64,000 nucleotides of DNA from Parvularcula lutaonensis (GTDB lineage: Bacteria; Pseudomonadota; Alphaproteobacteria; Caulobacterales; Parvularculaceae), in NCBI RefSeq assembly GCF_014651915.1, contig NZ_BMXU01000002.1, forward strand, positions 315,507 through 379,506, given 5' to 3'. The notes beneath the pieces are model-generated. The model did no database searches. It was not told the origin of the DNA and was given only the letters and a program-made list of their open reading frames with translations. Shown here piece by piece: positions 32,492 to 43,958 of this stretch (its first letter is position 1; each line of letters opens with the position of its first letter). A program made the translations under genes and the position numbers.

Positions 32492-34072
32492 CTAGAACTT
32501 CAGCGGCGCGGCCCGTTTGATTTGCGGCAGAGCGTTGATGGCTCGGAGCGTATCGTCCGACAGTTCTTGGTCGAGGGCAATAAGCGCCATGGCCTCCCCC
32601 CCAGCCTCCTGCCGGCCAAGGTTGAAGGTCGCGATGTTCACCTTGGCATCGCTGAGCACATCGCCGAGGGCGCCGATAAAGCCCGGCTTGTCCTCATTGA
32701 TGACGAAGAGCATGTTGGGCGCAAGGCTCGCCTCGAGCCTGACGTCCCCGATCCTGACGATCCGCGGCTCTCCGCCGAACAGCGCGCCAGTGACGGAGAA
32801 GGCGCCATTGGCCGTCTCGACTTTCACCGTCAGGGTGCTGCCGAAGTTGGGCGAGGTCTCGGTCTTCTCCTCAGTGATGCTGATGCCGCGGTCCTTGGCC
32901 AGGCTGGTCGCGTTGACCGCGTTCACCGTGGCGAGCTGCGGCTTGAGCGCCGAGGAAACCACGCCCGAGACGATGGGCCCGGCCTTCAGCTCACTGACAT
33001 GCCCTGCGAAGCGAACGGAGATGCCAGTGATCGCTCCATCGACGAGCTGGCCTGCAAGACTGCCAAGCTTCTCGCCAAGATTGATGAACGGCTTGAGCTT
33101 GGGCGCTTCATCGGCGGTGACCGACGGCATGTTGAGTGCGTTCTGCACCGCACCAGTGAGGAGGTAGTCCGCGATCTGCTCGGCAATCTGGACGGCGACG
33201 TTTTCCTGCGCCTCCCGGGTCGATGCACCGAGGTGCGGCGTGACAACGACATTCTCGCGCTCGAAGATCGGATGGTTTTTCGCCGGCTCCTCCGCAAAGA
33301 CGTCAAGGGCAGCGCCGGCCACCCGGCCGTCATCGAGAGCTTCGGCCAGAGCGTCTTCATCGATCAGGCCGCCGCGGGCGCAGTTGATGATGAACGCGCC
33401 AGGCCGGATGACCTCCAGCGCTTCGCGACTGATGATGTTGCGCGTCTTGTCGTTGAGCGGGGTGTGGAGGCTGATGAAGTCCGCACGCTGCAGAAGCTCG
33501 TTCAAGGAGACGAGCTCAACGCCCATGTCGTTGGCCTTCTCCTCCGACAGGAAGGGGTCGAAAGCGATGACCTTCATGCGCAGTCCCTGGGCACGGCTGG
33601 CGACGATACCGCCAATATTCCCTGCGCCGATGAGGCCGAGAGTCTTGCCGAAAAGCTCGCGGCCCATGAATTTCGACTTCTCCCACTTCGACTGCTTGGT
33701 CGAAGCATCCGCCTGCGGAATCTTCCGGGCGACGGCGAACATCATGGCGATGGCGTGCTCAGCCGTGGTGACCGCGTTTCCGAACGGGGTGTTCATCACC
33801 GCGATGCCGGCTGCGGTGGCGGCATCGATGTCGATGTTGTCGACACCGATCCCTGCCCTGCCGATCACCTTGAGCTTTGGCGCAGCCTCAATAAGCTCCG
33901 CCGTCATTTTGGTGGCAGAACGAATGGCGAGGCCGTCCACGTCCTGCAGCGCCTCTTTCAGCGCGGCAGGGTCCTTGCCGAGGTCGGGATTGAAGACGAC
34001 CTCAATCTTGCGGGCTTCGAGGATGCGGACGGCGTCATCGCCTAGCTTGTCGGAAATCAGTACCTTGACCAT
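32492..34072 (-). CDS. serA: D-3-phosphoglycerate dehydrogenase
   Basis: First step of serine synthesis. The 526-aa protein (long type) has a substrate-binding segment, a Rossmann motif GAGNIGG (about 147-153), catalytic Arg/Glu/His (His in TPHLGAS), an ASB intervening domain, and a C-terminal ACT domain (about 455-526), which usually mediates serine feedback. Placed between serC (21-nt gap) and serB (adjacent). Confidence 0.97.
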   Translation of the reverse strand: MVKVLISDKLGDDAVRILEARKIEVVFNPDLGKDPAALKEALQDVDGLAIRSATKMTAELIEAAPKLKVIGRAGIGVDNIDIDAATAAGIAVMNTPFGNAVTTAEHAIAMMFAVARKIPQADASTKQSKWEKSKFMGRELFGKTLGLIGAGNIGGIVASRAQGLRMKVIAFDPFLSEEKANDMGVELVSLNELLQRADFISLHTPLNDKTRNIISREALEVIRPGAFIINCARGGLIDEDALAEALDDGRVAGAALDVFAEEPAKNHPIFERENVVVTPHLGASTREAQENVAVQIAEQIADYLLTGAVQNALNMPSVTADEAPKLKPFINLGEKLGSLAGQLVDGAITGISVRFAGHVSELKAGPIVSGVVSSALKPQLATVNAVNATSLAKDRGISITEEKTETSPNFGSTLTVKVETANGAFSVTGALFGGEPRIVRIGDVRLEASLAPNMLFVINEDKPGFIGALGDVLSDAKVNIATFNLGRQEAGGEAMALIALDQELSDDTLRAINALPQIKRAAPLKF

Positions 34073-34093
34073 TTTTGTGTTTCCCTTGGTCGG

Positions 34094-35242
34094 TCAGAGC
34101 GTTTCGGCTTCGGCGGCGAAGGCCCAGTCAAGCCACGGTGTCAGGGCTTCGATGTCGGCGGTTTCGACCGTCGCCCCACACCAGATGCGAAGGCCCGGAG
34201 GCGCCGCACGGTATCCTGCGATGTCATAGGCAGCTTCGGCATCAGCGAGGCGCTTTGTCATCCGTTTGATGAAGGCCTGCTGTTCCTCCGCAGGCAGAGC
34301 AGCAACGCGCTGATCGGTAACCTTCAGGCAGACAGAAGTGTTCGACCGGATCGGCTTCTCTGCGAGGAAATCGACCCAGCCGGTCCTCCCGACCCAGCTT
34401 TCGAGCGCTTCGAGGTTGGCATCGGCTCGTGCTTTCAGGGCCGAAAGACCACCGAGACTTTCCGCCCATTCGAGCGCGTCGATATAATCCTCGACACAAA
34501 GCATGGATGGCGTGTTGATCGTCTCGCCGCGAAAAATGCCCTCGTTGAGCTGGCCTTTCTTCTTGAGACGGAAGATCTTGGGCAGAGGCCATTCGGGCTG
34601 GTAGCTGTTGATGCGCTCAATAGCACGAGGCCCGAGAATGAGGATGCCGTGCTGGGCCTCGCCGCCCAGAACCTTCTGCCAGGAATACGTGACCACATCG
34701 AGCTTCTCCCAGGGAAGATCCTGCGCAAAGGCTGCCGAGGTGGCATCGCAAATCGTCAGGCCCTCGCGGTCGTCGGAAATCCAATCCGCGTGCGGAACCC
34801 TCACCCCCGAGGTCGTTCCGTTCCAGGTGAAGACAATGTCGTGGCCCTGGTCGACCTTCGTGAGATCGGGGATGTCGCCGTAGTCGGCTTGCAAGACGGT
34901 CGGGGAGAGGCTGAGCTCGTCGACCGCATCCTTGACCCAGTCGAGGCCGAAGCTTTCCCAAGCGAGGGTCGTGACGGGCCGCGCACCGAGAAGGTTCCAC
35001 ATGGCGATCTCCACGGCGCCGGTGTCGGACGCGGGCACGATGCCGATAAGGTGGCTAGCGGGAACCTCGAGAACCGCGCGGGTCTTGTCGATCGCTTCTT
35101 TGAGCCGCGCCTTGCCGATCGAGGAACGGTGCGAGCGGCCAAGGGTCGGGCTCGACAGGCATGCAGGCGACCAGCCGGGGCGCTTGGCACATGGACCGGA
35201 CGAGAAGGATGGCTGGGCGGGGCGACGCGTAGGTTGTTCCAT
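34094..35242 (-). CDS. serC: Phosphoserine aminotransferase
   Basis: PLP enzyme of 382 aa that makes phosphoserine from phosphohydroxypyruvate and glutamate. It begins with the family motif PSFSSGPCAKRPGW. The PLP lysine is in YSWQKVLGGEAQHG, and the WNGTTSGVRVP segment is typical of the alphaproteobacterial branch of SerC. AGAGAGCC precedes the ATG. First gene of the ser operon, and divergent from the HTH gene of the partition region. Confidence 0.96.
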   Translation of the reverse strand: MEQPTRRPAQPSFSSGPCAKRPGWSPACLSSPTLGRSHRSSIGKARLKEAIDKTRAVLEVPASHLIGIVPASDTGAVEIAMWNLLGARPVTTLAWESFGLDWVKDAVDELSLSPTVLQADYGDIPDLTKVDQGHDIVFTWNGTTSGVRVPHADWISDDREGLTICDATSAAFAQDLPWEKLDVVTYSWQKVLGGEAQHGILILGPRAIERINSYQPEWPLPKIFRLKKKGQLNEGIFRGETINTPSMLCVEDYIDALEWAESLGGLSALKARADANLEALESWVGRTGWVDFLAEKPIRSNTSVCLKVTDQRVAALPAEEQQAFIKRMTKRLADAEAAYDIAGYRAAPPGLRIWCGATVETADIEALTPWLDWAFAAEAETL

Positions 35243-35338
35243 GGCTCTCTTTGGAAGGCTCTATGTTGCAGCGCAAGAGAAGCACGAATTGTCCTCGAAA
35301 ACACGAGGCGATTTGCGCCGATCTCTCCACAGGCGGAA

Positions 35339-36268
35339 ATGTCGCGACAGAGGAACCGATGGCTGATAGAGCGGTTCCTTATGGCAAATCTCGATCCCTC
35401 TGTCTGGTCATCCTGCGGGTATTACTTGGGACAGCTATCGGCAGCAATCGACCGCTCTGCCTTGCGTTCGCTGTGGCTCAGCCATGAGACGGCAAGGGTC
35501 GTCGCCCGCCTCTACTCGCGAGGGGCAGCGCCTGTCTCCCAGGAGGATCTTCTCGCCATGGCCGCGGGCGTCCCTTCAGGGGCGCCGTCGGTAGAAGAAG
35601 CAGCGGCCCGCCGGTTTTGGGGCGGCGCCCTCCGTCTCTGGCGGCCGAGGCTGACGCGTGAGCCGGTGGCTAACGTCCCCGAAATCACGAATCAGATCGC
35701 TCGGCTCCTGGCAGAGGGCCTGCCTCCGGGCGATCTCGCCATGGAAACGCCGCTGCGCGTGGCCGCGCTGACCGGCTGGCCCCTGCCCTGCTCCGCCTTG
35801 GCGCTCCCGCGCGAGGATGCCCCCGATTGGCAGGCGGCCTTTGTTACGGGACTTGCCGAGGAAGCACGGCAAAGCCTCCTGAGGCTCCAGGCGCTGGAGC
35901 GGGATTTCGGACGGTGGCGGTCTCTCCTCCCGCCGACGCGTTCGGACAGCCGGCTTGAGGAAGCGGTCGTGCTTTTAGGGACAGTTCATGCGCTGACCCC
36001 GCGCTATGTCGGGCAAACGCTAGGATTGACGAGGCAAGCCGCGGCAAGGCTCTGCAAGCGGCTCGAGGGGTTGGGAATTGTCCGCAAAGCCACGAGCCGC
36101 AAACGCTGGCTTGTCTATCTCGCAGAGAATGCAACCTCGCTCCAGGCAGTCCGCGAAAACACGACCGACATCCCCACCGGCGCGGCGGTGGATGTGGAGG
36201 AAATCGACCGGGTCCTCGAGAGCGCCTATGCGGCGCTCGACCGCTCGGTGAAGAGGGACGACGCTTAG
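35339..36268 (+). CDS. HTH protein next to the partition genes, unknown
   Basis: The 309-aa protein has no family that I can name. The C-terminal third contains a convincing winged HTH (YVGQTLGLTRQAAARLCKRL, followed by GIVRKATSRKRWLVY). The N-terminal two thirds are helical and Leu/Ala/Arg-rich. The start is uncertain: the ATG at 35339 is used, and 35381 also fits. Its TAG shares TTAG with the parB stop (36265-36268). Position between the ser operon and parB suggests a role in copy control or partition, but this is inference. A small palindrome CCTCG-N6-CGAGG at 35293-35308 precedes it. Confidence 0.6.
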   Translation: MSRQRNRWLIERFLMANLDPSVWSSCGYYLGQLSAAIDRSALRSLWLSHETARVVARLYSRGAAPVSQEDLLAMAAGVPSGAPSVEEAAARRFWGGALRLWRPRLTREPVANVPEITNQIARLLAEGLPPGDLAMETPLRVAALTGWPLPCSALALPREDAPDWQAAFVTGLAEEARQSLLRLQALERDFGRWRSLLPPTRSDSRLEEAVVLLGTVHALTPRYVGQTLGLTRQAAARLCKRLEGLGIVRKATSRKRWLVYLAENATSLQAVRENTTDIPTGAAVDVEEIDRVLESAYAALDRSVKRDDA

Positions 36269-37230
36269 AAGAGCGCGTCCTCGATCGCTTTGAGGACAGC
36301 CTTCTTGTCGGATAGCTGGCCGCGGGGAATCGTGAGGACATGGGTCCGCGCGCGGCGTTCGACGGTAAGAAGCGTGCGGCCTTCCCCGTCGAGGATCGTG
36401 TCCATGTCCTTCTGTTTGGGGGCCTTCGCGGCGGATTTGAGGGCTGCAAGAACCTGCGCAGCACTTTTCCTGTCCCCGTTTGCACGAGCCTCGGCGAGAT
36501 CAGCCGCAGCCTTCAGGACGAAAGGTGCAGCTTCGGACGCCAAGAGCGGCGAAAGCTCGGCCGCGTGCCGGATGCCGATGTCGCGGACATCGGGATAGGC
36601 ATCGAGGATGGCCTGCGGAAGCTCCCCGATGCGAAGATAGCGGCTAAGCCAGCTTCGATCGACGCCAATGCGTTCCGCCATCAGGGACTTGTTGCCATCG
36701 TAGTAAGCATCGAGCGCCCGGCCATAATCCCGGCTGCGCTCGTAGTCGGAAATGTCCTCGCGCTCCCGGTTTTCGAGATCGGAGAGGCGGAAGGCCTCCT
36801 CGTCCGAAATCTCGCGAATATCGACAAGATAAAGGATGTCGTTGCGGTGCTCGGCCTCGCGGAGGTGACTGATCGCGAAATGACGGCGTGCGCCGCAGAT
36901 GACTTCGTACCGGTATTTCCCGCCGGACAGGGGCCGCACGATGGCAGGCATTTCCTGACGCCCGACGGCCTTGATGGACTTGATCAGGTCGCTGCAGCTT
37001 TCAGGGGTCAGGAGGTCATAGAGGCGGTTGTGACCCTCCCACATCCGGCATTCTTTAGGGTCCACCAGGCGCAGCTTGCCATTGCGGAGCCGGCCTTCCG
37101 AGGCTTCGGAGATCAGGCTCTCGCGCTCGGCGGTGTACTCGCGTCGCGGGGCCTCGCGCTCTTGCTTTTGGCTGCTTTCGAGGCGGGCATTGATGGCGTC
37201 GGCGAGGATTCGGGCGCGTTTGCGGGCCAT
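36265..37230 (-). CDS. parB: Partition protein ParB
   Basis: Centromere-binding CTPase-type ParB of 321 aa. The N-terminal nuclease-like domain has box II written as CGARRHFA (GERR-type CTP-binding motif). The central HTH is LMAERIGVDRSWLSRYLRI, and the C-terminal dimerisation part is from about 250. The ATG at 37230 is preceded by AAGGGG. Frames upstream of it cover the palindrome array and are not coding. The gene is downstream of parA on the same strand, with three palindromes between them. Confidence 0.93.
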   Translation of the reverse strand: MARKRARILADAINARLESSQKQEREAPRREYTAERESLISEASEGRLRNGKLRLVDPKECRMWEGHNRLYDLLTPESCSDLIKSIKAVGRQEMPAIVRPLSGGKYRYEVICGARRHFAISHLREAEHRNDILYLVDIREISDEEAFRLSDLENREREDISDYERSRDYGRALDAYYDGNKSLMAERIGVDRSWLSRYLRIGELPQAILDAYPDVRDIGIRHAAELSPLLASEAAPFVLKAAADLAEARANGDRKSAAQVLAALKSAAKAPKQKDMDTILDGEGRTLLTVERRARTHVLTIPRGQLSDKKAVLKAIEDALF

Positions 37231-37252: not shown

Positions 37253-37316
37253 GTGCACATGTGCACGGTGATTGGCTGTGCACATGTGCACAATGGCAAA
37301 GCGTGCACATGTGCAC
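37253..37316. repeat. Three GTGCACATGTGCAC palindromes at 25-bp spacing: candidate parS
   Basis: Three perfect copies of a 14-bp palindrome lie at 37253-37266, 37278-37291 and 37303-37316, each starting exactly 25 bp after the last. The second and third extend to 16-bp palindromes through flanking bases. They fill the 96-bp gap between parA and parB. The sequence is unlike the chromosomal parS consensus (TGTTTCACGTGAAACA) and the repABC consensus. A centromere and/or parB operator is the likely role. Confidence 0.8.
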
Positions 37317-37326
37317 GCCCATACCA

Positions 37327-38532: not shown

Positions 38533-38571
38533 CGCTGCAGTTTTCGCGAGTAAGGACCGAAAACTGCAGCG
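38533..38571. promoter_or_regulatory. Perfect 14-bp inverted repeat, probable parA operator
   Basis: CGCTGCAGTTTTCG (38533-38546) and its complement (38558-38571), 11-bp spacer, 16 bp upstream of the parA ATG. Likely site of parAB autoregulation, or an RNA hairpin in the parA leader. Confidence 0.65.
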
Positions 38572-38606: not shown

Positions 38607-38721
38607 TCGTGGTTTCAGGGATAGCCCGTGCACCTCTGCTCGTGCTTTCACCGCCACAAGGTCGTGTCTTCACGGACAGTCTTTTCGTGGAATGACGGAC
38701 GGATGTTCGTGATATCACGGT
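38607..38721 (+). repeat. Iteron cluster A (5 copies, direct)
   Basis: Fifteen-base copies of the theme TCGTGcTTTCAcGGA begin at 38607, 38640, 38662, 38685 and 38707. The last four are spaced 22-23 bp, about two helical turns, so they fall on one face of the DNA. Matches are imperfect in the centre but TCGTG and the GG(A) end are kept. Confidence 0.8.
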
Positions 38722-38896
38722 CGCAATACCGGGTATGGCCTAATGAATCCAGTGCCTTACGCCGGCGTTAAAGAACTAAACCAAGATAACCACCTTAATC
38801 GGCGTTTGCCGGGGTTTTTGGGGTGGAGGAGAAAATTCCGCAGCATAGCGGGCCGGACGATTCGGGCGTGAACGACTCAATGACCGAAAGCTAGCT

Positions 38897-39066
38897 TCGT
38901 GCTTTCACGGATAAACGAGCCGATTCGTCCTTGAAAGCACGAGAGAGGCGAAGGAACGTCCCCTTTTCCCGAGAAAGCTCGGGATTCCTGGCCTTTCCGC
39001 CGTGGTACAACCGCAGGATCGCACGCAGTCTCTCGTGCTTTTGGGGATGAATCCCTGAAGACACGA
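38897..39066. repeat. Iteron cluster B (4 copies, mixed orientation)
   Basis: Copies of the same 15-base theme: 38897-38911 (+, best match TCGTGCTTTCACGGA), 38928-38942 (-), 39033-39047 (+), 39052-39066 (-). The last pair is inverted, ends 70 bp before the repA ATG, and may be the autoregulatory operator of repA. Confidence 0.75.
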
Positions 39067-39135: not shown

Positions 39136-40278
39136 ATGGCTGAACAAATGAGCCTCGCCTGCCTCGACAGTCCCCTCCATGGTCAGGTGAAGGGCGAACG
39201 CTCGGTAATGGCGTTCCCGTTTTTCGCCCTCTCCAAAGGGCGCCGCATGCAGCCGATCACCTATTCGGACGACTATGTGTCCATCGAAGTCCGCCCGAGC
39301 CAGACCGGTGTCGCCACAATCTATGACAAGGAAATCCTGCTTTACATCGCGAGCCTGCTGGTCAGCCAGATGAAGCGCAAGGAGACGCCGAGCCAGGAAT
39401 ACAGCTTCACGGCCCACGACTTCCTGCGCGTGATTGGCGGTAACCGCTCGGCCCGCAGCTACCAGAGGATCAACGGCGCACTGGAAAGGCTGCAGGGCAC
39501 TCAGATCAAGACCAATATCGAAGCTGGCGGGGAGGGGGAGGACGGCTTCTTCTCCTGGGTCTCCGAGGCGAAGATGAGCTACACGAAGACGGCGGACGGC
39601 CAAAAGCGCCTCAACCGCGTCAAGGTCCGGCTCTGCGACTGGCTCTACCGGGCGCTGATCAAGGACCAGAAGATCCTCACCTATGACAGCCACTACTTCC
39701 AGCTCTCGCCGATCGAGCGCCGGCTCTATGAGATTGCGCGGGTCCATTGCGGCAACCAGCGTTTCTTCCATATCGGGCTGAAAAAGCTGCAGACGAAGGT
39801 CGGCTCGGAAGACCGGCCGGCGAAATTCAAATCGGCGCTGCGGGAAATCGAGACCCGGCAGCCGATCCCGGAATATGATCTCGTGGTGGTCGACGATCCC
39901 CACTCCGACGGTGCGCGGTTGATCGCCTCGGCGGGTTTCGGTGCCGCCATCAGCAAGCGGAACCCCATGGTCCTCTTCCGCCCGAAGGGCAGGCCGCGGC
40001 GCCAGCGCGTCGAGATCGAAGCTCCAGCCGAGCAGAGCGTCCAGCCAGCACGTGCCGATGCACCCAAGCCAATCGAGAAGCCCTGCGAGCCATCTGATCT
40101 CGAGGTGAGCTCCTACGCTCTCGAACAGGCTGCGCGAATGTTCCCCGGCTATGACAAATACGCGGTCCTGGAAGAATGGAAGCGCTGGGCGTTGACCAAG
40201 GAGGCGCCGCGCCGTCCCGATGCCGCGTTCCTCGCCTTCTTCACCACCTATGCGAAGCGCAACCCGCTGCCGAACTGA
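39136..40278 (+). CDS. repA: RPA-type replication initiator
   Basis: Initiator of the Replication protein A (RPA) family found on alphaproteobacterial plasmids and chromids, 380 aa. The family start MAFPFFALSKGRR (about 25-37) is clear. The winged-helix initiator core follows, with TAHDFLRVIGG, RINGALERLQGT and YDSHYFQLSPIERRLYEIAR. A Pro-rich linker and a C-terminal helical segment that may bind DNA or DnaB end the protein. The ATG at 39136 has GGAGAG 7-12 nt upstream. The stop overlaps the next gene (TGATG), so initiator and nuclease are coupled. Confidence 0.93.
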   Translation: MAEQMSLACLDSPLHGQVKGERSVMAFPFFALSKGRRMQPITYSDDYVSIEVRPSQTGVATIYDKEILLYIASLLVSQMKRKETPSQEYSFTAHDFLRVIGGNRSARSYQRINGALERLQGTQIKTNIEAGGEGEDGFFSWVSEAKMSYTKTADGQKRLNRVKVRLCDWLYRALIKDQKILTYDSHYFQLSPIERRLYEIARVHCGNQRFFHIGLKKLQTKVGSEDRPAKFKSALREIETRQPIPEYDLVVVDDPHSDGARLIASAGFGAAISKRNPMVLFRPKGRPRRQRVEIEAPAEQSVQPARADAPKPIEKPCEPSDLEVSSYALEQAARMFPGYDKYAVLEEWKRWALTKEAPRRPDAAFLAFFTTYAKRNPLPN

Positions 40279-41339
40279 TGGGCTTCCGTTTCGTCCATAC
40301 GGCTGACTGGCAGCTCGGCAAGCCTTTCGGACGTTTCGGACCCGAAAAGGCCGCGCTCCTGCAGCAGGCTCGGCAGGCCATCCCGGAGAGGATCGCGAAG
40401 CTGGCCCGTGACGAAGGCGCGTCCCATGTCCTCGTGGCTGGTGATGTCTGGGACCAGGAAGTCCCGGCGGATCGGGTGCTGCGCCAGCCCCTCGACCGGA
40501 TGGCGGATGCTTCGGATCTCACTTGGTGGCTTCTTCCGGGGAACCACGATCCGGCGAAGGAAGAAGGTCTCTGGGACCGTCTTCGTGCTTTCGGAGTCCC
40601 CGAGAATGTTCGCCTGCTGACCGAGGCTGTTCCCCAGGAGATGGAGCAGGGGATCACGCTTCTCCCAGCCCCGTGGCATTCGAAGCGACCGGGCCGGGAC
40701 CTGACAGCCTGGTTCGGAGGGGAGGGGACCTTGATCGGCCTCGCCCATGGCAGCGTGCAGGATTTCAGCTCCCGCGCCGATGGCAGTGCGGTGATCGCCA
40801 AGGACCGTGCTGACCAAGCGGGTCTTGCCTATCTCGCGCTCGGCGACTGGCACGGCATGCGCGAAGCCGGGCCACGGGCGTGGTATCCCGGCACGCCCGA
40901 GCCCGATAATTTCAGGCAGAACGACCAGGGCCATGCCCTGGTGGTCGATCTCGACACGCCGAACAAGCCGGTGGCCCATGCCACCGGGATCTATGACTGG
41001 CTGCGCCACGAGGTTGTTCTCGAAGACCTCTCGTCGATCGACAGCTATCTGCCCGATCAGAGGGCTCTCGACCGGACGCTTCTCCGCCTGAAGCTCACCG
41101 GTGCGGTGTCCTTTGCCGACCGAGCCGCGCTCGAGGAGAAATTGGCTTTGGAGGAGGGGCGCTTCTTCACGCTCGAGGTGGATTGGGCGGGCGTGGAGAC
41201 GCGCCTCGACGAGGCTGATCTCGATGAACGCCTGGGCGACGGCATGCTGCGCCGGGTGGCTGACCGGCTGATCGCCATGGACGGCCATCCGGAAGCTGCC
41301 GAAGCGCTGCGGCTCCTTGACAGGATGCTGAGGGACTGA
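40278..41339 (+). CDS. SbcD/Mre11-like DNA repair nuclease
   Basis: Calcineurin-like phosphoesterase of 353 aa with the Mre11/SbcD motif set: HTADWQLG (motif I), GDVWDQ (II), LLPGNHD (III), GLAHGS and LALGDWHG (IV-V). Family members cut DNA ends with a two-metal centre. It starts within the repA stop and is followed after 3 nt by an SMC-like ATPase, so the pair looks like an SbcCD-type or YhaO/YhaN-type complex tied to the replicon. It is smaller than Escherichia coli SbcD (400 aa). Confidence 0.88.
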   Translation: MGFRFVHTADWQLGKPFGRFGPEKAALLQQARQAIPERIAKLARDEGASHVLVAGDVWDQEVPADRVLRQPLDRMADASDLTWWLLPGNHDPAKEEGLWDRLRAFGVPENVRLLTEAVPQEMEQGITLLPAPWHSKRPGRDLTAWFGGEGTLIGLAHGSVQDFSSRADGSAVIAKDRADQAGLAYLALGDWHGMREAGPRAWYPGTPEPDNFRQNDQGHALVVDLDTPNKPVAHATGIYDWLRHEVVLEDLSSIDSYLPDQRALDRTLLRLKLTGAVSFADRAALEEKLALEEGRFFTLEVDWAGVETRLDEADLDERLGDGMLRRVADRLIAMDGHPEAAEALRLLDRMLRD

Positions 41340-41342
41340 GCG

Positions 41343-43958
41343 ATGCGCATCAATGCCATACGCCTGCGGAACGTGCGTCGTTTCGGACCCGAAGGGATTG
41401 CCCTCGAGGATCTCGCGCCGGGCCTCAACGTCCTGACCGCGCCAAACGAATTCGGCAAGAGCACGCTCCTCGATGCCCTGCGCTTCGCGTTTTTCGTCAA
41501 GGACAGCTCACGAGAGCAGAAAACGGCGGGGAGCCTGCGCTCCCATGGAGCGACGGATGATCCATTCGTTGAGGTTGCCTTTGAGGCGGGAGGCGAGCGA
41601 TACCGCCTCGCCAAGCGCTTTGCCGAGGGCCGGAAGGGCTCGATGACACGGCTCGAGCTTCTCTCGGGCGGGGCCTCGTTGCTTGGCGACGACGCCGATG
41701 ACCGGCTCAAGGCGCTTCTTGGGGCGGACAAAATGCAGGCGGGTCCGACCGGCCTTCTGTGGGTCGGGCAGGGCGACAGCCTTCGGAGCATTGTCACCCA
41801 GGACAAGACCAGCGCGACGCGCGAGCAGGCCGAGACCATGGCGAGCCTTCTGGCCGGGGAAGTGTCCGCGATCAGCGGCTCCGACGATGCCAGGAAGGTG
41901 GCTGCAGCGGCAACCGAAGCGCTGAAGGCGTTGGAGACCCCGAAGAACCGCAAGGCGACGGGCAAGCTGGCCGAAGCCGAGGCCATTGTTGGGGCGCTAA
42001 GGCAGCGCCTCCAGGCGGCGCAGGCACGGGTCGATCGATCGGCAAAGCTCCGGGACGAGCTCGCGGCGAAGCGCGCCGAACTCGCGTCGCTTGACGATCC
42101 GGAGGACGCCGCCCGGCGCCGGGCAGAGCTGGCCGAGGCGGAGAAAAGGGCCGCCGATGGCGAGCGGTTGCGCTCCGAGCGTGGTCATACCGAGGAACTC
42201 ATCGAGCGGGATCGCCTTGAGCAACAGCGCGCGGAGGAGCGGCGGCAGGAACTGGCAGATAAGGTCAAGCGACTGAGCGAGCTGAGAAAAACAGCCGGTA
42301 TGGCCGCGCATGCGCTGGACGGACTGGAACAGGATCGCGGTATGGCCAAGAAAGACCGCGAGGCCGCACGGCGAAAGCGCGCCGCGGCGCAGGAGCAGTC
42401 GGCCGTGATCCGTGAAAAGCTCGATCGCTGGCAGCGGATCGACAATGCGAGGCGGGCACGAAGCGAACGCAAGCAATTGCTGGATAATCTCGACGCAGCG
42501 CAGCAGGCGGCTAAATCCCTAGTGGAGATCGAGCAGGTCGCTTCCCAGCCGCCGATCGACCTCAACAGGCTCCGCGAGGCCGAACAAGCGGTTGACCGGG
42601 CCGAGGCGAGGCTGAGCGCAGCTTCGCCGGAACTGACCGTTGAGAGCGGCGGCCCGGTCTCGGTCGATGGTGTGGAGGTTGGTGCAGGGCAAGGCGCCCG
42701 TATTTCGGGGGAGGGACGGATCAGTGTGGCCGGCACGGTGATGACCCTCGCTTTGCCCGGCCGCGAGGCTCTCCGCGAGGAGGTGCAGACTGCAAAGGCG
42801 AATAGGGACCGTTTGTTTTCCGAAATGAACGTCACGAGCCTTTCGGAGGCGCAGGACCGGGAAGACGCCCGGATCCGTGCCGGGGCGATGCGTGACGCGG
42901 CGCGCCGGGAGCTTCGTCGCCTGGCGCCCGATGGCATCGATGCACTGCGGGTGCGGATCGGCACGCTTGAGGAGGGCGCGTCGGAGGGTGCCGCGCCTGA
43001 CGAGGGTCGCCCTGAGCTTGAACAGGCCCTTCTGAAGGCGGCGGAGGCAGAACGGGCGGCTGCAGAAGAGGAAAGGAGGCTCTCCGAAATTCTCGACCAG
43101 CTGGCTGACAAGCGCACCCAAGCTGCCTTGGAACTCGAAGTGATGCGTCGCGAAGCAGCGGCGCTCGACGCTGATCTTGGCGACGAAGCCGAGCAGGAGG
43201 CCTCGAGAAAGAAGCTCGACGAGGAGATCGCAGCTGTGGAGAGCCGGATCGGCGCTCGCCGCCTGCAGATTGAGGCGATCGAAAAAGCGCTCCGGGACGT
43301 CAAACGCGCCGAGAAGGACGTCGAACGCCTGCGCGGTGTGGAAGCGAACGAACGGCGCCGGAGCGAGAGTCTCGGTAAGGACATTGTCCGGATCGAAACT
43401 GAGCTGAAGGGTCTCTACGCCGACGGGGTCGAGGCCGAGCTTGCAGAGCTCGCCGACGAACTGGCCATCGCAGAACAGCGGCTGGCCAAACTTCAGGAGC
43501 GCCGCGGTGCGCTCCGCCTGATCGTCGACCTCATCGCAGAGGAGGAAGAAACCCGTCGCGAGACGATCGTCGCGCCGGTGATGAAGGCACTCGACCCGAT
43601 GCTCGAACGGGTATTCGGTGACGCCCGGCTTCGTTTCGATAGCGAATGGAACCCGGAAAAACTTGAGCGGCCGGGGCAGCCCGAGGATGTCCGCAGTCTT
43701 TCGGCGGGAACGCGAGAGCAGATCGCGATCCTCACAAGGCTGGCCTTCGCAAGGCTGATGGCCGAACGCGGCAACCCCATGCCCGTCATCCTCGATGACG
43801 CACTCGGCTACGCAGACGACAGCCGGGCGCGAAAGCTCTTCGGCGTTTTGCACGAGGTGGCCGAGGAGACCCAGATCATCGTGCTGACCTGCCATGACCG
43901 GCTGTTCCGCGACCTTGGCGGACAGGGCCTGGAACCAACGCCCTTTCCCGAAACCTGA
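41343..43958 (+). CDS. SMC/Rad50-like ATPase (YhaN type), partner of the nuclease
   Basis: The 871-aa protein has an N-terminal ABC ATPase half with Walker A around NEFGKST (about 35-41). Long coiled coils at about 190-430 and 530-740 flank a small beta domain near 445-480 (GGPVSVDGVEVGAGQGARI). The C-terminal half has the signature LSAGTREQIA and Walker B VILDDALGYAD. No CxxC zinc hook is present; the only Cys I see is near the end. This resembles YhaN-type ATPases rather than Rad50/SbcC. A perfect 7-bp hairpin overlaps the stop (43958-43975). Confidence 0.87.
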   Translation: MRINAIRLRNVRRFGPEGIALEDLAPGLNVLTAPNEFGKSTLLDALRFAFFVKDSSREQKTAGSLRSHGATDDPFVEVAFEAGGERYRLAKRFAEGRKGSMTRLELLSGGASLLGDDADDRLKALLGADKMQAGPTGLLWVGQGDSLRSIVTQDKTSATREQAETMASLLAGEVSAISGSDDARKVAAAATEALKALETPKNRKATGKLAEAEAIVGALRQRLQAAQARVDRSAKLRDELAAKRAELASLDDPEDAARRRAELAEAEKRAADGERLRSERGHTEELIERDRLEQQRAEERRQELADKVKRLSELRKTAGMAAHALDGLEQDRGMAKKDREAARRKRAAAQEQSAVIREKLDRWQRIDNARRARSERKQLLDNLDAAQQAAKSLVEIEQVASQPPIDLNRLREAEQAVDRAEARLSAASPELTVESGGPVSVDGVEVGAGQGARISGEGRISVAGTVMTLALPGREALREEVQTAKANRDRLFSEMNVTSLSEAQDREDARIRAGAMRDAARRELRRLAPDGIDALRVRIGTLEEGASEGAAPDEGRPELEQALLKAAEAERAAAEEERRLSEILDQLADKRTQAALELEVMRREAAALDADLGDEAEQEASRKKLDEEIAAVESRIGARRLQIEAIEKALRDVKRAEKDVERLRGVEANERRRSESLGKDIVRIETELKGLYADGVEAELAELADELAIAEQRLAKLQERRGALRLIVDLIAEEEETRRETIVAPVMKALDPMLERVFGDARLRFDSEWNPEKLERPGQPEDVRSLSAGTREQIAILTRLAFARLMAERGNPMPVILDDALGYADDSRARKLFGVLHEVAEETQIIVLTCHDRLFRDLGGQGLEPTPFPET

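What the first reader, a model, noticed from the sequence alone, without database searches (positions are those of the whole stretch)
37253..37316. Three perfect GTGCACATGTGCAC palindromes at exactly 25-bp steps: possible new parS class
The array fills the parA-parB gap. Spacing is invariant (37253, 37278, 37303). The motif differs from both the chromosomal parS and the repABC parS consensus sequences as I know them. Two copies extend to 16-bp palindromes. Periodic perfect palindromes beside parB are what a ParB-CTPase centromere or parB operator would look like.
Basis: partly seen in the sequence, partly recalled or inferred. Interest (0 to 1): 0.8.

Follow-up and report, generated by a model that had tools for sequence, protein, structure and literature searches.

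The report
Replicon-specific parS centromere array beside parB
Three copies of a short DNA palindrome between two DNA-segregation genes are very probably the docking site by which a large replicon of this bacterium is pulled apart at cell division; the letters are new, but the kind of site is well known.

Summary
Three perfect GTGCACATGTGCAC palindromes stand 25 bp apart in the 96-bp gap between parA and parB, and nowhere else in the searchable 2.95-Mb genome. In 398 genomes of the order, a tandem pair of GTGCACNNGTGCAC occurs in six: exactly the six with the closest ParB relatives, and each pair lies in the parA-parB gap. There the GTGCAC hexamers are invariant, while steps (25, 25, 33, 25, 25, 41, 30 bp) and the central two bases vary. 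More distant ParB relatives carry other perfect palindromes, between parA and parB, after parB or beside rep (assigned in 32 of 37 loci), and the half-site changes with the ParB recognition helix. Three contigs of this genome carry three parB genes with three different, contig-restricted palindromes. Best reading: parS of a type Ia (SopB/RepB-like) ParABS locus of an RPA-type replicon, probably a megabase chromid with serC-serA. It is a new sequence member of a known kind (as in repABC or Burkholderia secondary replicons), not a new class. Binding is untested.

The parts
37253..37266 (.). parS copy 1 (nearest parB), GTGCACATGTGCAC, 14-bp perfect palindrome
37277..37292 (.). parS copy 2, 16-bp perfect palindrome around GTGCACATGTGCAC
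37301..37318 (.). parS copy 3 (nearest parA), 18-bp perfect palindrome around GTGCACATGTGCAC
36265..37230 (-). parB, 321 aa: ParB_N region with GARR and ENxxRxD motifs, SopB_HTH domain with WLSR recognition helix
37327..38517 (-). parA, 396 aa: ParA/AAA_31 ATPase (KGGVGKS), matches SopA/RepA partition ATPase models below their equivalog cut-offs
38533..38571 (.). 14-bp inverted repeat with 11-bp spacer 15 bp upstream of parA; candidate parA operator (inference). Exact outer 8-bp arms kept in 1 (G079) of 5 relatives examined
38607..39051 (.). six degenerate 19-bp repeats (TCGTGCTTTCACGGA-like) between parA and rep; candidate iterons of the origin (inference); two similar repeats found in L007
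39136..40278 (+). replication initiator of the RPA family (PF10134), divergent from parAB

Best explanation
The three palindromes are parS, the centromere-like site of the ParABS locus of the replicon in which the window lies. Proposed working: a ParB dimer docks on each GTGCAC-N2-GTGCAC with its SopB-type HTH; docking lets the N-terminal CTPase domains close as a clamp that slides onto flanking DNA; the ParA ATPase encoded next door pulls the loaded sister replicons apart. Three clustered copies raise loading at one place beside the RPA-type origin. The site is specific to its own ParB, so it does not mix with the chromosomal parS or with the parS of the 84.8-kb contig in the same cell. Shown here: sequence, copy number, position, conservation with ParB, association with the HTH. 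Inferred from the ParB family: binding, CTP clamp, sliding, cognate specificity, segregation.
For: Only three copies in the genome, all in the gap; no one-mismatch copy in the 1,080,651-bp contig. Of 398 genomes of the order, 5 hold the exact 14-mer (9 places): 8 lie in the parA-parB gap of the four genomes whose ParB is 70-100% identical, 1 elsewhere in G265. The tandem degenerate form is in 6 of 398, the six genomes with the best ParB matches. In the aligned six gaps the invariant columns are the GTGCAC hexamers plus one C. ParB has SopB_HTH above Pfam's cut-off, matches TIGR00180 above cut-off, and GxRR and ENxxRxD are kept in 37 of 37 aligned ParBs, the window's included. 32 of 37 parAB loci have a perfect palindrome of 14 bp or more that I assigned to the locus: 18 between parA and parB, 13 at or after the parB end, 1 only beside rep. 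Recognition helix WL[SN]R goes with G at position -5 of the half-site in 21 of 21 loci, other helices in 1 of 11. Three parB genes, three palindromes in one genome: C1 TGTTTCACGTGAAACG twice, 2-4 kb from its parB match; C2 this motif; C3 GTTCAACGCGTTGAAC twice.
Against: No binding or segregation data. Five of 37 related loci have no assigned palindrome (L014, L021, L096, L097, L142), so the rule is not universal. Assignment was by eye (repeat or position), and L018 and L019 are identical loci. ParA, ParB and Rep are inherited together, so covariation with ParB alone is not separable from ParA or Rep. The helix-base pattern was noticed after looking, the loci are related (the tree needs about three changes), and L020 has an R at that helix place without the G. 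ParB_N scored slightly under Pfam's cut-off (23.7 against 26.3). One exact copy in G265 has no parA, parB or rep match within its 3-kb locus.
Confidence: 0.9

Rival explanations
1. The array is mainly an operator: ParB (or ParA) binds it to repress transcription of parB from a promoter in the parA-parB gap. Partition would use another site.
For: The array lies immediately upstream of parB. SopB and P1 ParB act as co-repressors stimulated by their centromeres (passage of PMC7205306), so parS can also regulate.
Against: In 14 of the 32 assigned loci the palindrome is not upstream of parB but at or after its end, or only beside rep. On this contig no other 14-bp perfect palindrome occurs more than twice, and the seven that occur twice are at least 27 kb apart, so no obvious alternative partition array exists. 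A separate inverted repeat stands upstream of parA, where an autoregulatory operator is expected (inference).
Confidence: 0.06
2. The array binds the replication initiator (Rep) or is part of the origin rather than the partition site.
For: Eight of the 12 plasmid loci carry the same palindrome next to rep (L091-L095, L098, L100, L101).
Against: The window has a different set of repeats next to rep that look like iterons, and the array is separated from rep by the whole of parA. In L099 and L102 the annotated rep lies about 3 kb from the palindromes, which sit after parB. The half-site follows the ParB helix, though Rep covaries too.
Confidence: 0.02
3. Chance, or a mobile or methylation-related repeat unrelated to parB.
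For: One exact 14-mer occurs away from parAB in G265.
Against: 0 of 100 shuffles; GTGCAC is not enriched on the contig (193 observed, about 186 expected from its pentamers), yet six of them stand within 64 bp here; the tandem form was found only with this ParB in 398 genomes.
Confidence: 0.01

Closest known systems
repABC parS of Alphaproteobacteria (GTTNNNNGCNNNNAAC; PMC9040568, passages)
   Same: Palindrome bound by a RepB/SopB-like ParB, often repeated (up to four), may lie between repA and repB; ParA is RepA-like
   Different: Motif does not fit the consensus (centre AT, no GTT...AAC); initiator is RPA, not RepC; rep is divergent from parAB. The C3 palindrome GTTCAACGCGTTGAAC does fit the loose consensus
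Burkholderiales secondary-replicon (Bsr) parS sites (PMC5450999, abstract and introduction)
   Same: Different palindrome for each replicon of one cell, cognate ParB only, on secondary chromosomes and plasmids
   Different: 16-bp sites with a T-rich end and central CG in another order of bacteria; here 14-18 bp with a variable centre
F plasmid sopC / SopB
   Same: Type Ia parAB; SopB-type HTH; clustered inverted repeats at a regular step
   Different: sopC has 43-bp repeats and lies downstream of sopB (recalled); here three copies at 25 bp between parA and parB
Chromosomal parS TGTTTCACGTGAAACA
   Same: Palindromic ParB loading site; two one-mismatch copies on contig C1 near its own parB match
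   Different: Different half-site; no copy with fewer than three mismatches on C2

Membership tests
Type Ia ParABS partition locus (SopAB/RepAB-like) | ParA-family Walker ATPase gene next to parB | tested here: met
   AAA_31 105.6 bits; SopA model over residues 34-368 and RepA model over 43-383, both below their equivalog cut-offs
Type Ia ParABS partition locus (SopAB/RepAB-like) | ParB with N-terminal CTPase motifs and HTH | tested here: met
   SopB_HTH 42 bits over cut-off 27; TIGR00180 over cut-off; ParB_N just under cut-off; GxRR and ENxxRxD in 37 of 37; PDB matches are ParB, Spo0J, Noc and SopB chains
Type Ia ParABS partition locus (SopAB/RepAB-like) | Palindromic site(s) at the par locus, restricted to the replicon | tested here: met
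Type Ia ParABS partition locus (SopAB/RepAB-like) | Site conserved with its cognate ParB | tested here: met
Type Ia ParABS partition locus (SopAB/RepAB-like) | ParB binds the site and the site stabilises the replicon | not testable with these tools
   needs wet-lab work
Type Ia ParABS partition locus (SopAB/RepAB-like) | Predicted ParB fold agrees with solved ParB structures | tested here: inconclusive
   AlphaFold model from a two-sequence alignment had mean pLDDT 46 and was not used
repABC replicon | parS matching GTTNNNNGCNNNNAAC as a palindrome | tested here: not met
   8 matches to the loose pattern on C2, none of them palindromic
repABC replicon | repC initiator downstream of repB | tested here: not met
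   initiator is RPA PF10134, divergent from parAB
Chromosomal ParABS | parS TGTTTCACGTGAAACA | tested here: not met
   no match to TGTTNCACGTGNAACA in the genome; one-mismatch copies only on C1
Chromid (secondary chromosome) | Plasmid-type replication and partition genes on a large replicon with core genes | tested here: met
   RPA rep and parAB, serC and serA, 16 tRNA genes on a 1.08-Mb contig; in G079 the one serA match is on the 1.37-Mb contig
Chromid (secondary chromosome) | Physically separate from the main chromosome | tested here: inconclusive
   contig ends suggest it; no closed assembly of these replicons seen

The most novel reading that the evidence does not exclude
The array is the centromere of a second chromosome of Parvularcula-like bacteria (1.1-1.4 Mb, with serC-serA and tRNA genes) that no paper listed describes. 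It belongs to a broad set of RPA/Rep-linked parS palindromes whose half-site can be read from the ParB recognition helix: WL[SN]R with G at -5, WLSK with T, LLSS with C. The self-complementary half-site GTGCAC with a variable two-base centre would be an unusual parS that offers ParB two symmetric readings.
Probability: 0.45. Interest if true: 0.5.

Novelty: new member of a known kind. Interest (0 to 1): 0.35.

Why it matters
It gives a defined, testable ParB-parS pair in a group for which the papers searched showed none, and a natural series of about a dozen palindromes with their neighbouring ParBs from which the specificity of SopB/RepB-type ParBs could be worked out. It also points to a likely second chromosome in a genus in which two single-contig genomes have one chromosome and lack this ParB.

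Tried and rejected
Rejected: the idea that the 25-bp step is functionally fixed (steps in relatives 33, 25, 25, 41, 30); membership of repABC parS and of chromosomal parS; an operator as main role (positions in relatives).

Led nowhere: structure prediction of ParB from two sequences was too poor to use, so no fold search was made; a class-wide protein search (385 genomes, E 1e-25) found one genome beyond the window's own; near-palindromes in the five loci without an assigned site gave no clear answer, although L021 (WLSK helix) has a one-mismatch candidate with T at -5, as the pattern would predict; SSU rRNA could not be placed, since no match was returned for this genome and four short contigs read N at their tips. 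The GC skew of C2 is only weakly informative: its maximum (893,389) lies half a contig length from the array, but its minimum is at 85,996, not at the array. In the chromosomal-parS search with three mismatches allowed the backward control also gave one match, so only the two one-mismatch sites on C1 count. Papers: a text search for six of the palindromes found no paper in the library; searches for Parvularcula with chromid, plasmid or second chromosome showed no paper on such a replicon in the listings (15 of 185 and 10 of 278 listed). Older papers on palindromes of RPA and DnaA-like plasmids may exist outside the library (recalled, not seen). An earlier count said 18 tRNAs; the count is 16.

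Full report
Observation. GTGCACATGTGCAC stands at 37253, 37278 and 37303, three exact copies at steps of 25 bp. With two mismatches allowed the window holds no further match, and none of 100 dinucleotide shuffles reaches three. The copies are perfect palindromes of 14, 16 and 18 bp. They lie in the 96 bp between the stop of parA (37327) and the start of parB (37230), both on the minus strand. The window holds 13 perfect 14-bp palindrome centres in 64 kb, these three included, so three identical ones in 96 bp are far from chance.

Genes. parB (321 aa) matches SopB_HTH above Pfam's cut-off and ParB_N just below it, and TIGR00180 above cut-off. Its matches in the Protein Data Bank are Noc, Spo0J, ParB and SopB chains. 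parA (396 aa) is an AAA_31/ParA ATPase, similar to SopA and RepA models but below their equivalog cut-offs. The divergent rep is of the RPA family PF10134. Between rep and parA lie six degenerate 19-bp repeats that look like iterons, and a 14-bp inverted repeat upstream of parA.

Where the motif occurs. In its own genome (2,954,603 bases, 10 contigs) the 14-mer occurs three times, all here. On the whole contig C2 (1,080,651 bases) there is no one-mismatch copy and there are three two-mismatch copies. Among 398 genomes drawn from the order, 18 have a ParB match at E 1e-20 or better. The exact 14-mer is in 5 of 398, at nine places. Eight are in the parA-parB gaps of G000, G079, G169 and G104, whose ParBs are 100, 83, 75 and 70% identical to the query. 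One is in G265, in a 3-kb locus without parA, parB or rep match. The tandem form GTGCACNNGTGCAC-N5-35-GTGCACNNGTGCAC is in 6 of 398: the same four plus G119 and G109 (ParB 57 and 56%, 55 and 54%). Steps are 25+25, 33, 25, 25, 41 and 30; centres are AT, CT, CC or CG. In the alignment of the six gaps the invariant columns between parA and parB are four GTGCAC hexamers and one C. What is conserved is therefore GTGCAC-N2-GTGCAC, at least twice, not the 25-bp step.

Wider family. I examined 37 parAB loci: all 24 matches of the order search (the window's own, L005 and L008-L029), the one new match of the class search (L142), and 12 plasmids picked by hand for diversity, 11 from the 222 records matched by ParA and one from the ParB search. 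A perfect palindrome of 14 bp or more could be assigned in 32 of 37; in 21 of these the same core occurs at least twice in the stretch examined. The place is between parA and parB in 18, at or after the parB end in 13, and only beside rep in 1; eight plasmids have a copy beside rep. Examples: AATTGCACCGGTGCAATT in Sphingobium and Brevundimonas plasmids; palindromes around TTGCCAATTGGCAA in Paracoccus, Jannaschia and Rhodovulum; AATTGCCCATGGGCAATT in Sulfitobacter; GTTCAACGCGTTGAAC on the 84.8-kb contig of this genome and in four relatives. L014, L021, L096, L097 and L142 have none that I could assign. Assignment was by eye, and L018 and L019 are identical.

Recognition. In the 32 loci, ParBs with WL[SN]R in the recognition helix have G at position -5 of the half-site in 21 of 21; the others in 1 of 11. 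The Fisher value is 1.7e-7, but the pattern was noticed after looking, the loci are related, and the tree needs about three changes. WLSK goes with T (3 of 3) and LLSS with C (5 of 5). L020 (TLAR) has an R but C at -5, and L017 (TLGK) has no R but G. L011 and L012, whose helix is the same as that of L009 and L010 through WLSR, keep GTGCAC and change only the centre. Specificity changes in ParB/Noc through a few HTH residues are established (passages of PMC7383237).

Replicon. C1 (1,695,218 bases) carries a third parB match (31% identity), probably the chromosomal one, and two TGTTTCACGTGAAACG sites 2-4 kb away; C3 (84,839 bases) a ParB 51% identical and GTTCAACGCGTTGAAC twice; C2 the present motif. 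The exact C2 and C3 palindromes and the one-mismatch chromosomal sites were found on no other contig. C2 holds serC and serA, 16 tRNA genes in the 54 of 55 stretches scanned, and GC near 0.63. Its ends lie in an element shared with C4 and C6, while those of C1 are shared with C3. Its C1 (1,726,715) and C2 (1,367,241) each end in direct repeats of their own, as circles broken at a repeat would. Two single-contig genomes of the genus (2.90 and 3.08 Mb) have serC-serA side by side on that contig and no ParB match at E 1e-20. I infer a chromid; the assemblies do not prove it.

Mechanism. By the established ParABS model, ParB loads at parS, closes as a CTP clamp and slides, and ParA moves the complex; SopB is among the ParBs with CTP-binding motifs (passages of PMC7205306). 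GxRR and ENxxRxD, which I recall as parts of the CTP-binding motifs, are present in 37 of 37 ParBs. Binding, CTP use and segregation are inferred here.

Known and new. Replicon-specific palindromic parS sites on secondary chromosomes and plasmids are described for Burkholderia (abstract and introduction of PMC5450999) and for repABC replicons, including repeats and sites between repA and repB (passages of PMC9040568). Passages of PMC9025767, PMC3925955 and PMC3832669 gave no parS of this type. The six palindromes searched as text were in no paper of the library. The finding is a new member of a known kind.

Noticed in passing
window 32492-35242; contig C2; L007: serC and serA, core biosynthesis genes, end about 1 kb from parB of the plasmid-type rep-par locus on a megabase contig; a likely chromid in Parvularcula-like bacteria, while two single-contig genomes of the genus have them on one contig without this ParB.
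   Followed up: partly
L005 (C3 51380-51521): The 84.8-kb contig carries a paralogous parAB with GTTCAACGCGTTGAAC twice in its parA-parB gap, matching the loose repABC parS consensus; same pattern in four relatives (L025-L028). Whether a repC lies near was not examined.
   Followed up: partly
window 38533-38571: Perfect 14-bp inverted repeat with 11-bp spacer, 15 bp upstream of parA, with exact outer arms in one of five relatives; candidate ParA-bound operator.
   Followed up: partly
window 38607-39051: Six degenerate 19-bp direct repeats between parA and rep, with two similar ones in P. mediterranea; candidate iterons of the origin.
   Followed up: partly
window 40275-43958: SbcD-like and Rad50/SbcC-like genes (below their family cut-offs) directly after rep; such enzymes cut palindromic DNA (recalled), so their place near a palindrome array is curious.
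   Followed up: no
ends of C2, C4 and C6: Contig ends carry copies of one transposase-like element (label from reading, not searched), in inverted orientation at the two ends of C2, which breaks the assembly.
   Followed up: no
window 34649-36268: ORF between serC and parB (overlapping serC) with weak MarR-like and DUF1403 matches below their cut-offs; an ORF of like position and sequence is in P. mediterranea L007.
   Followed up: no
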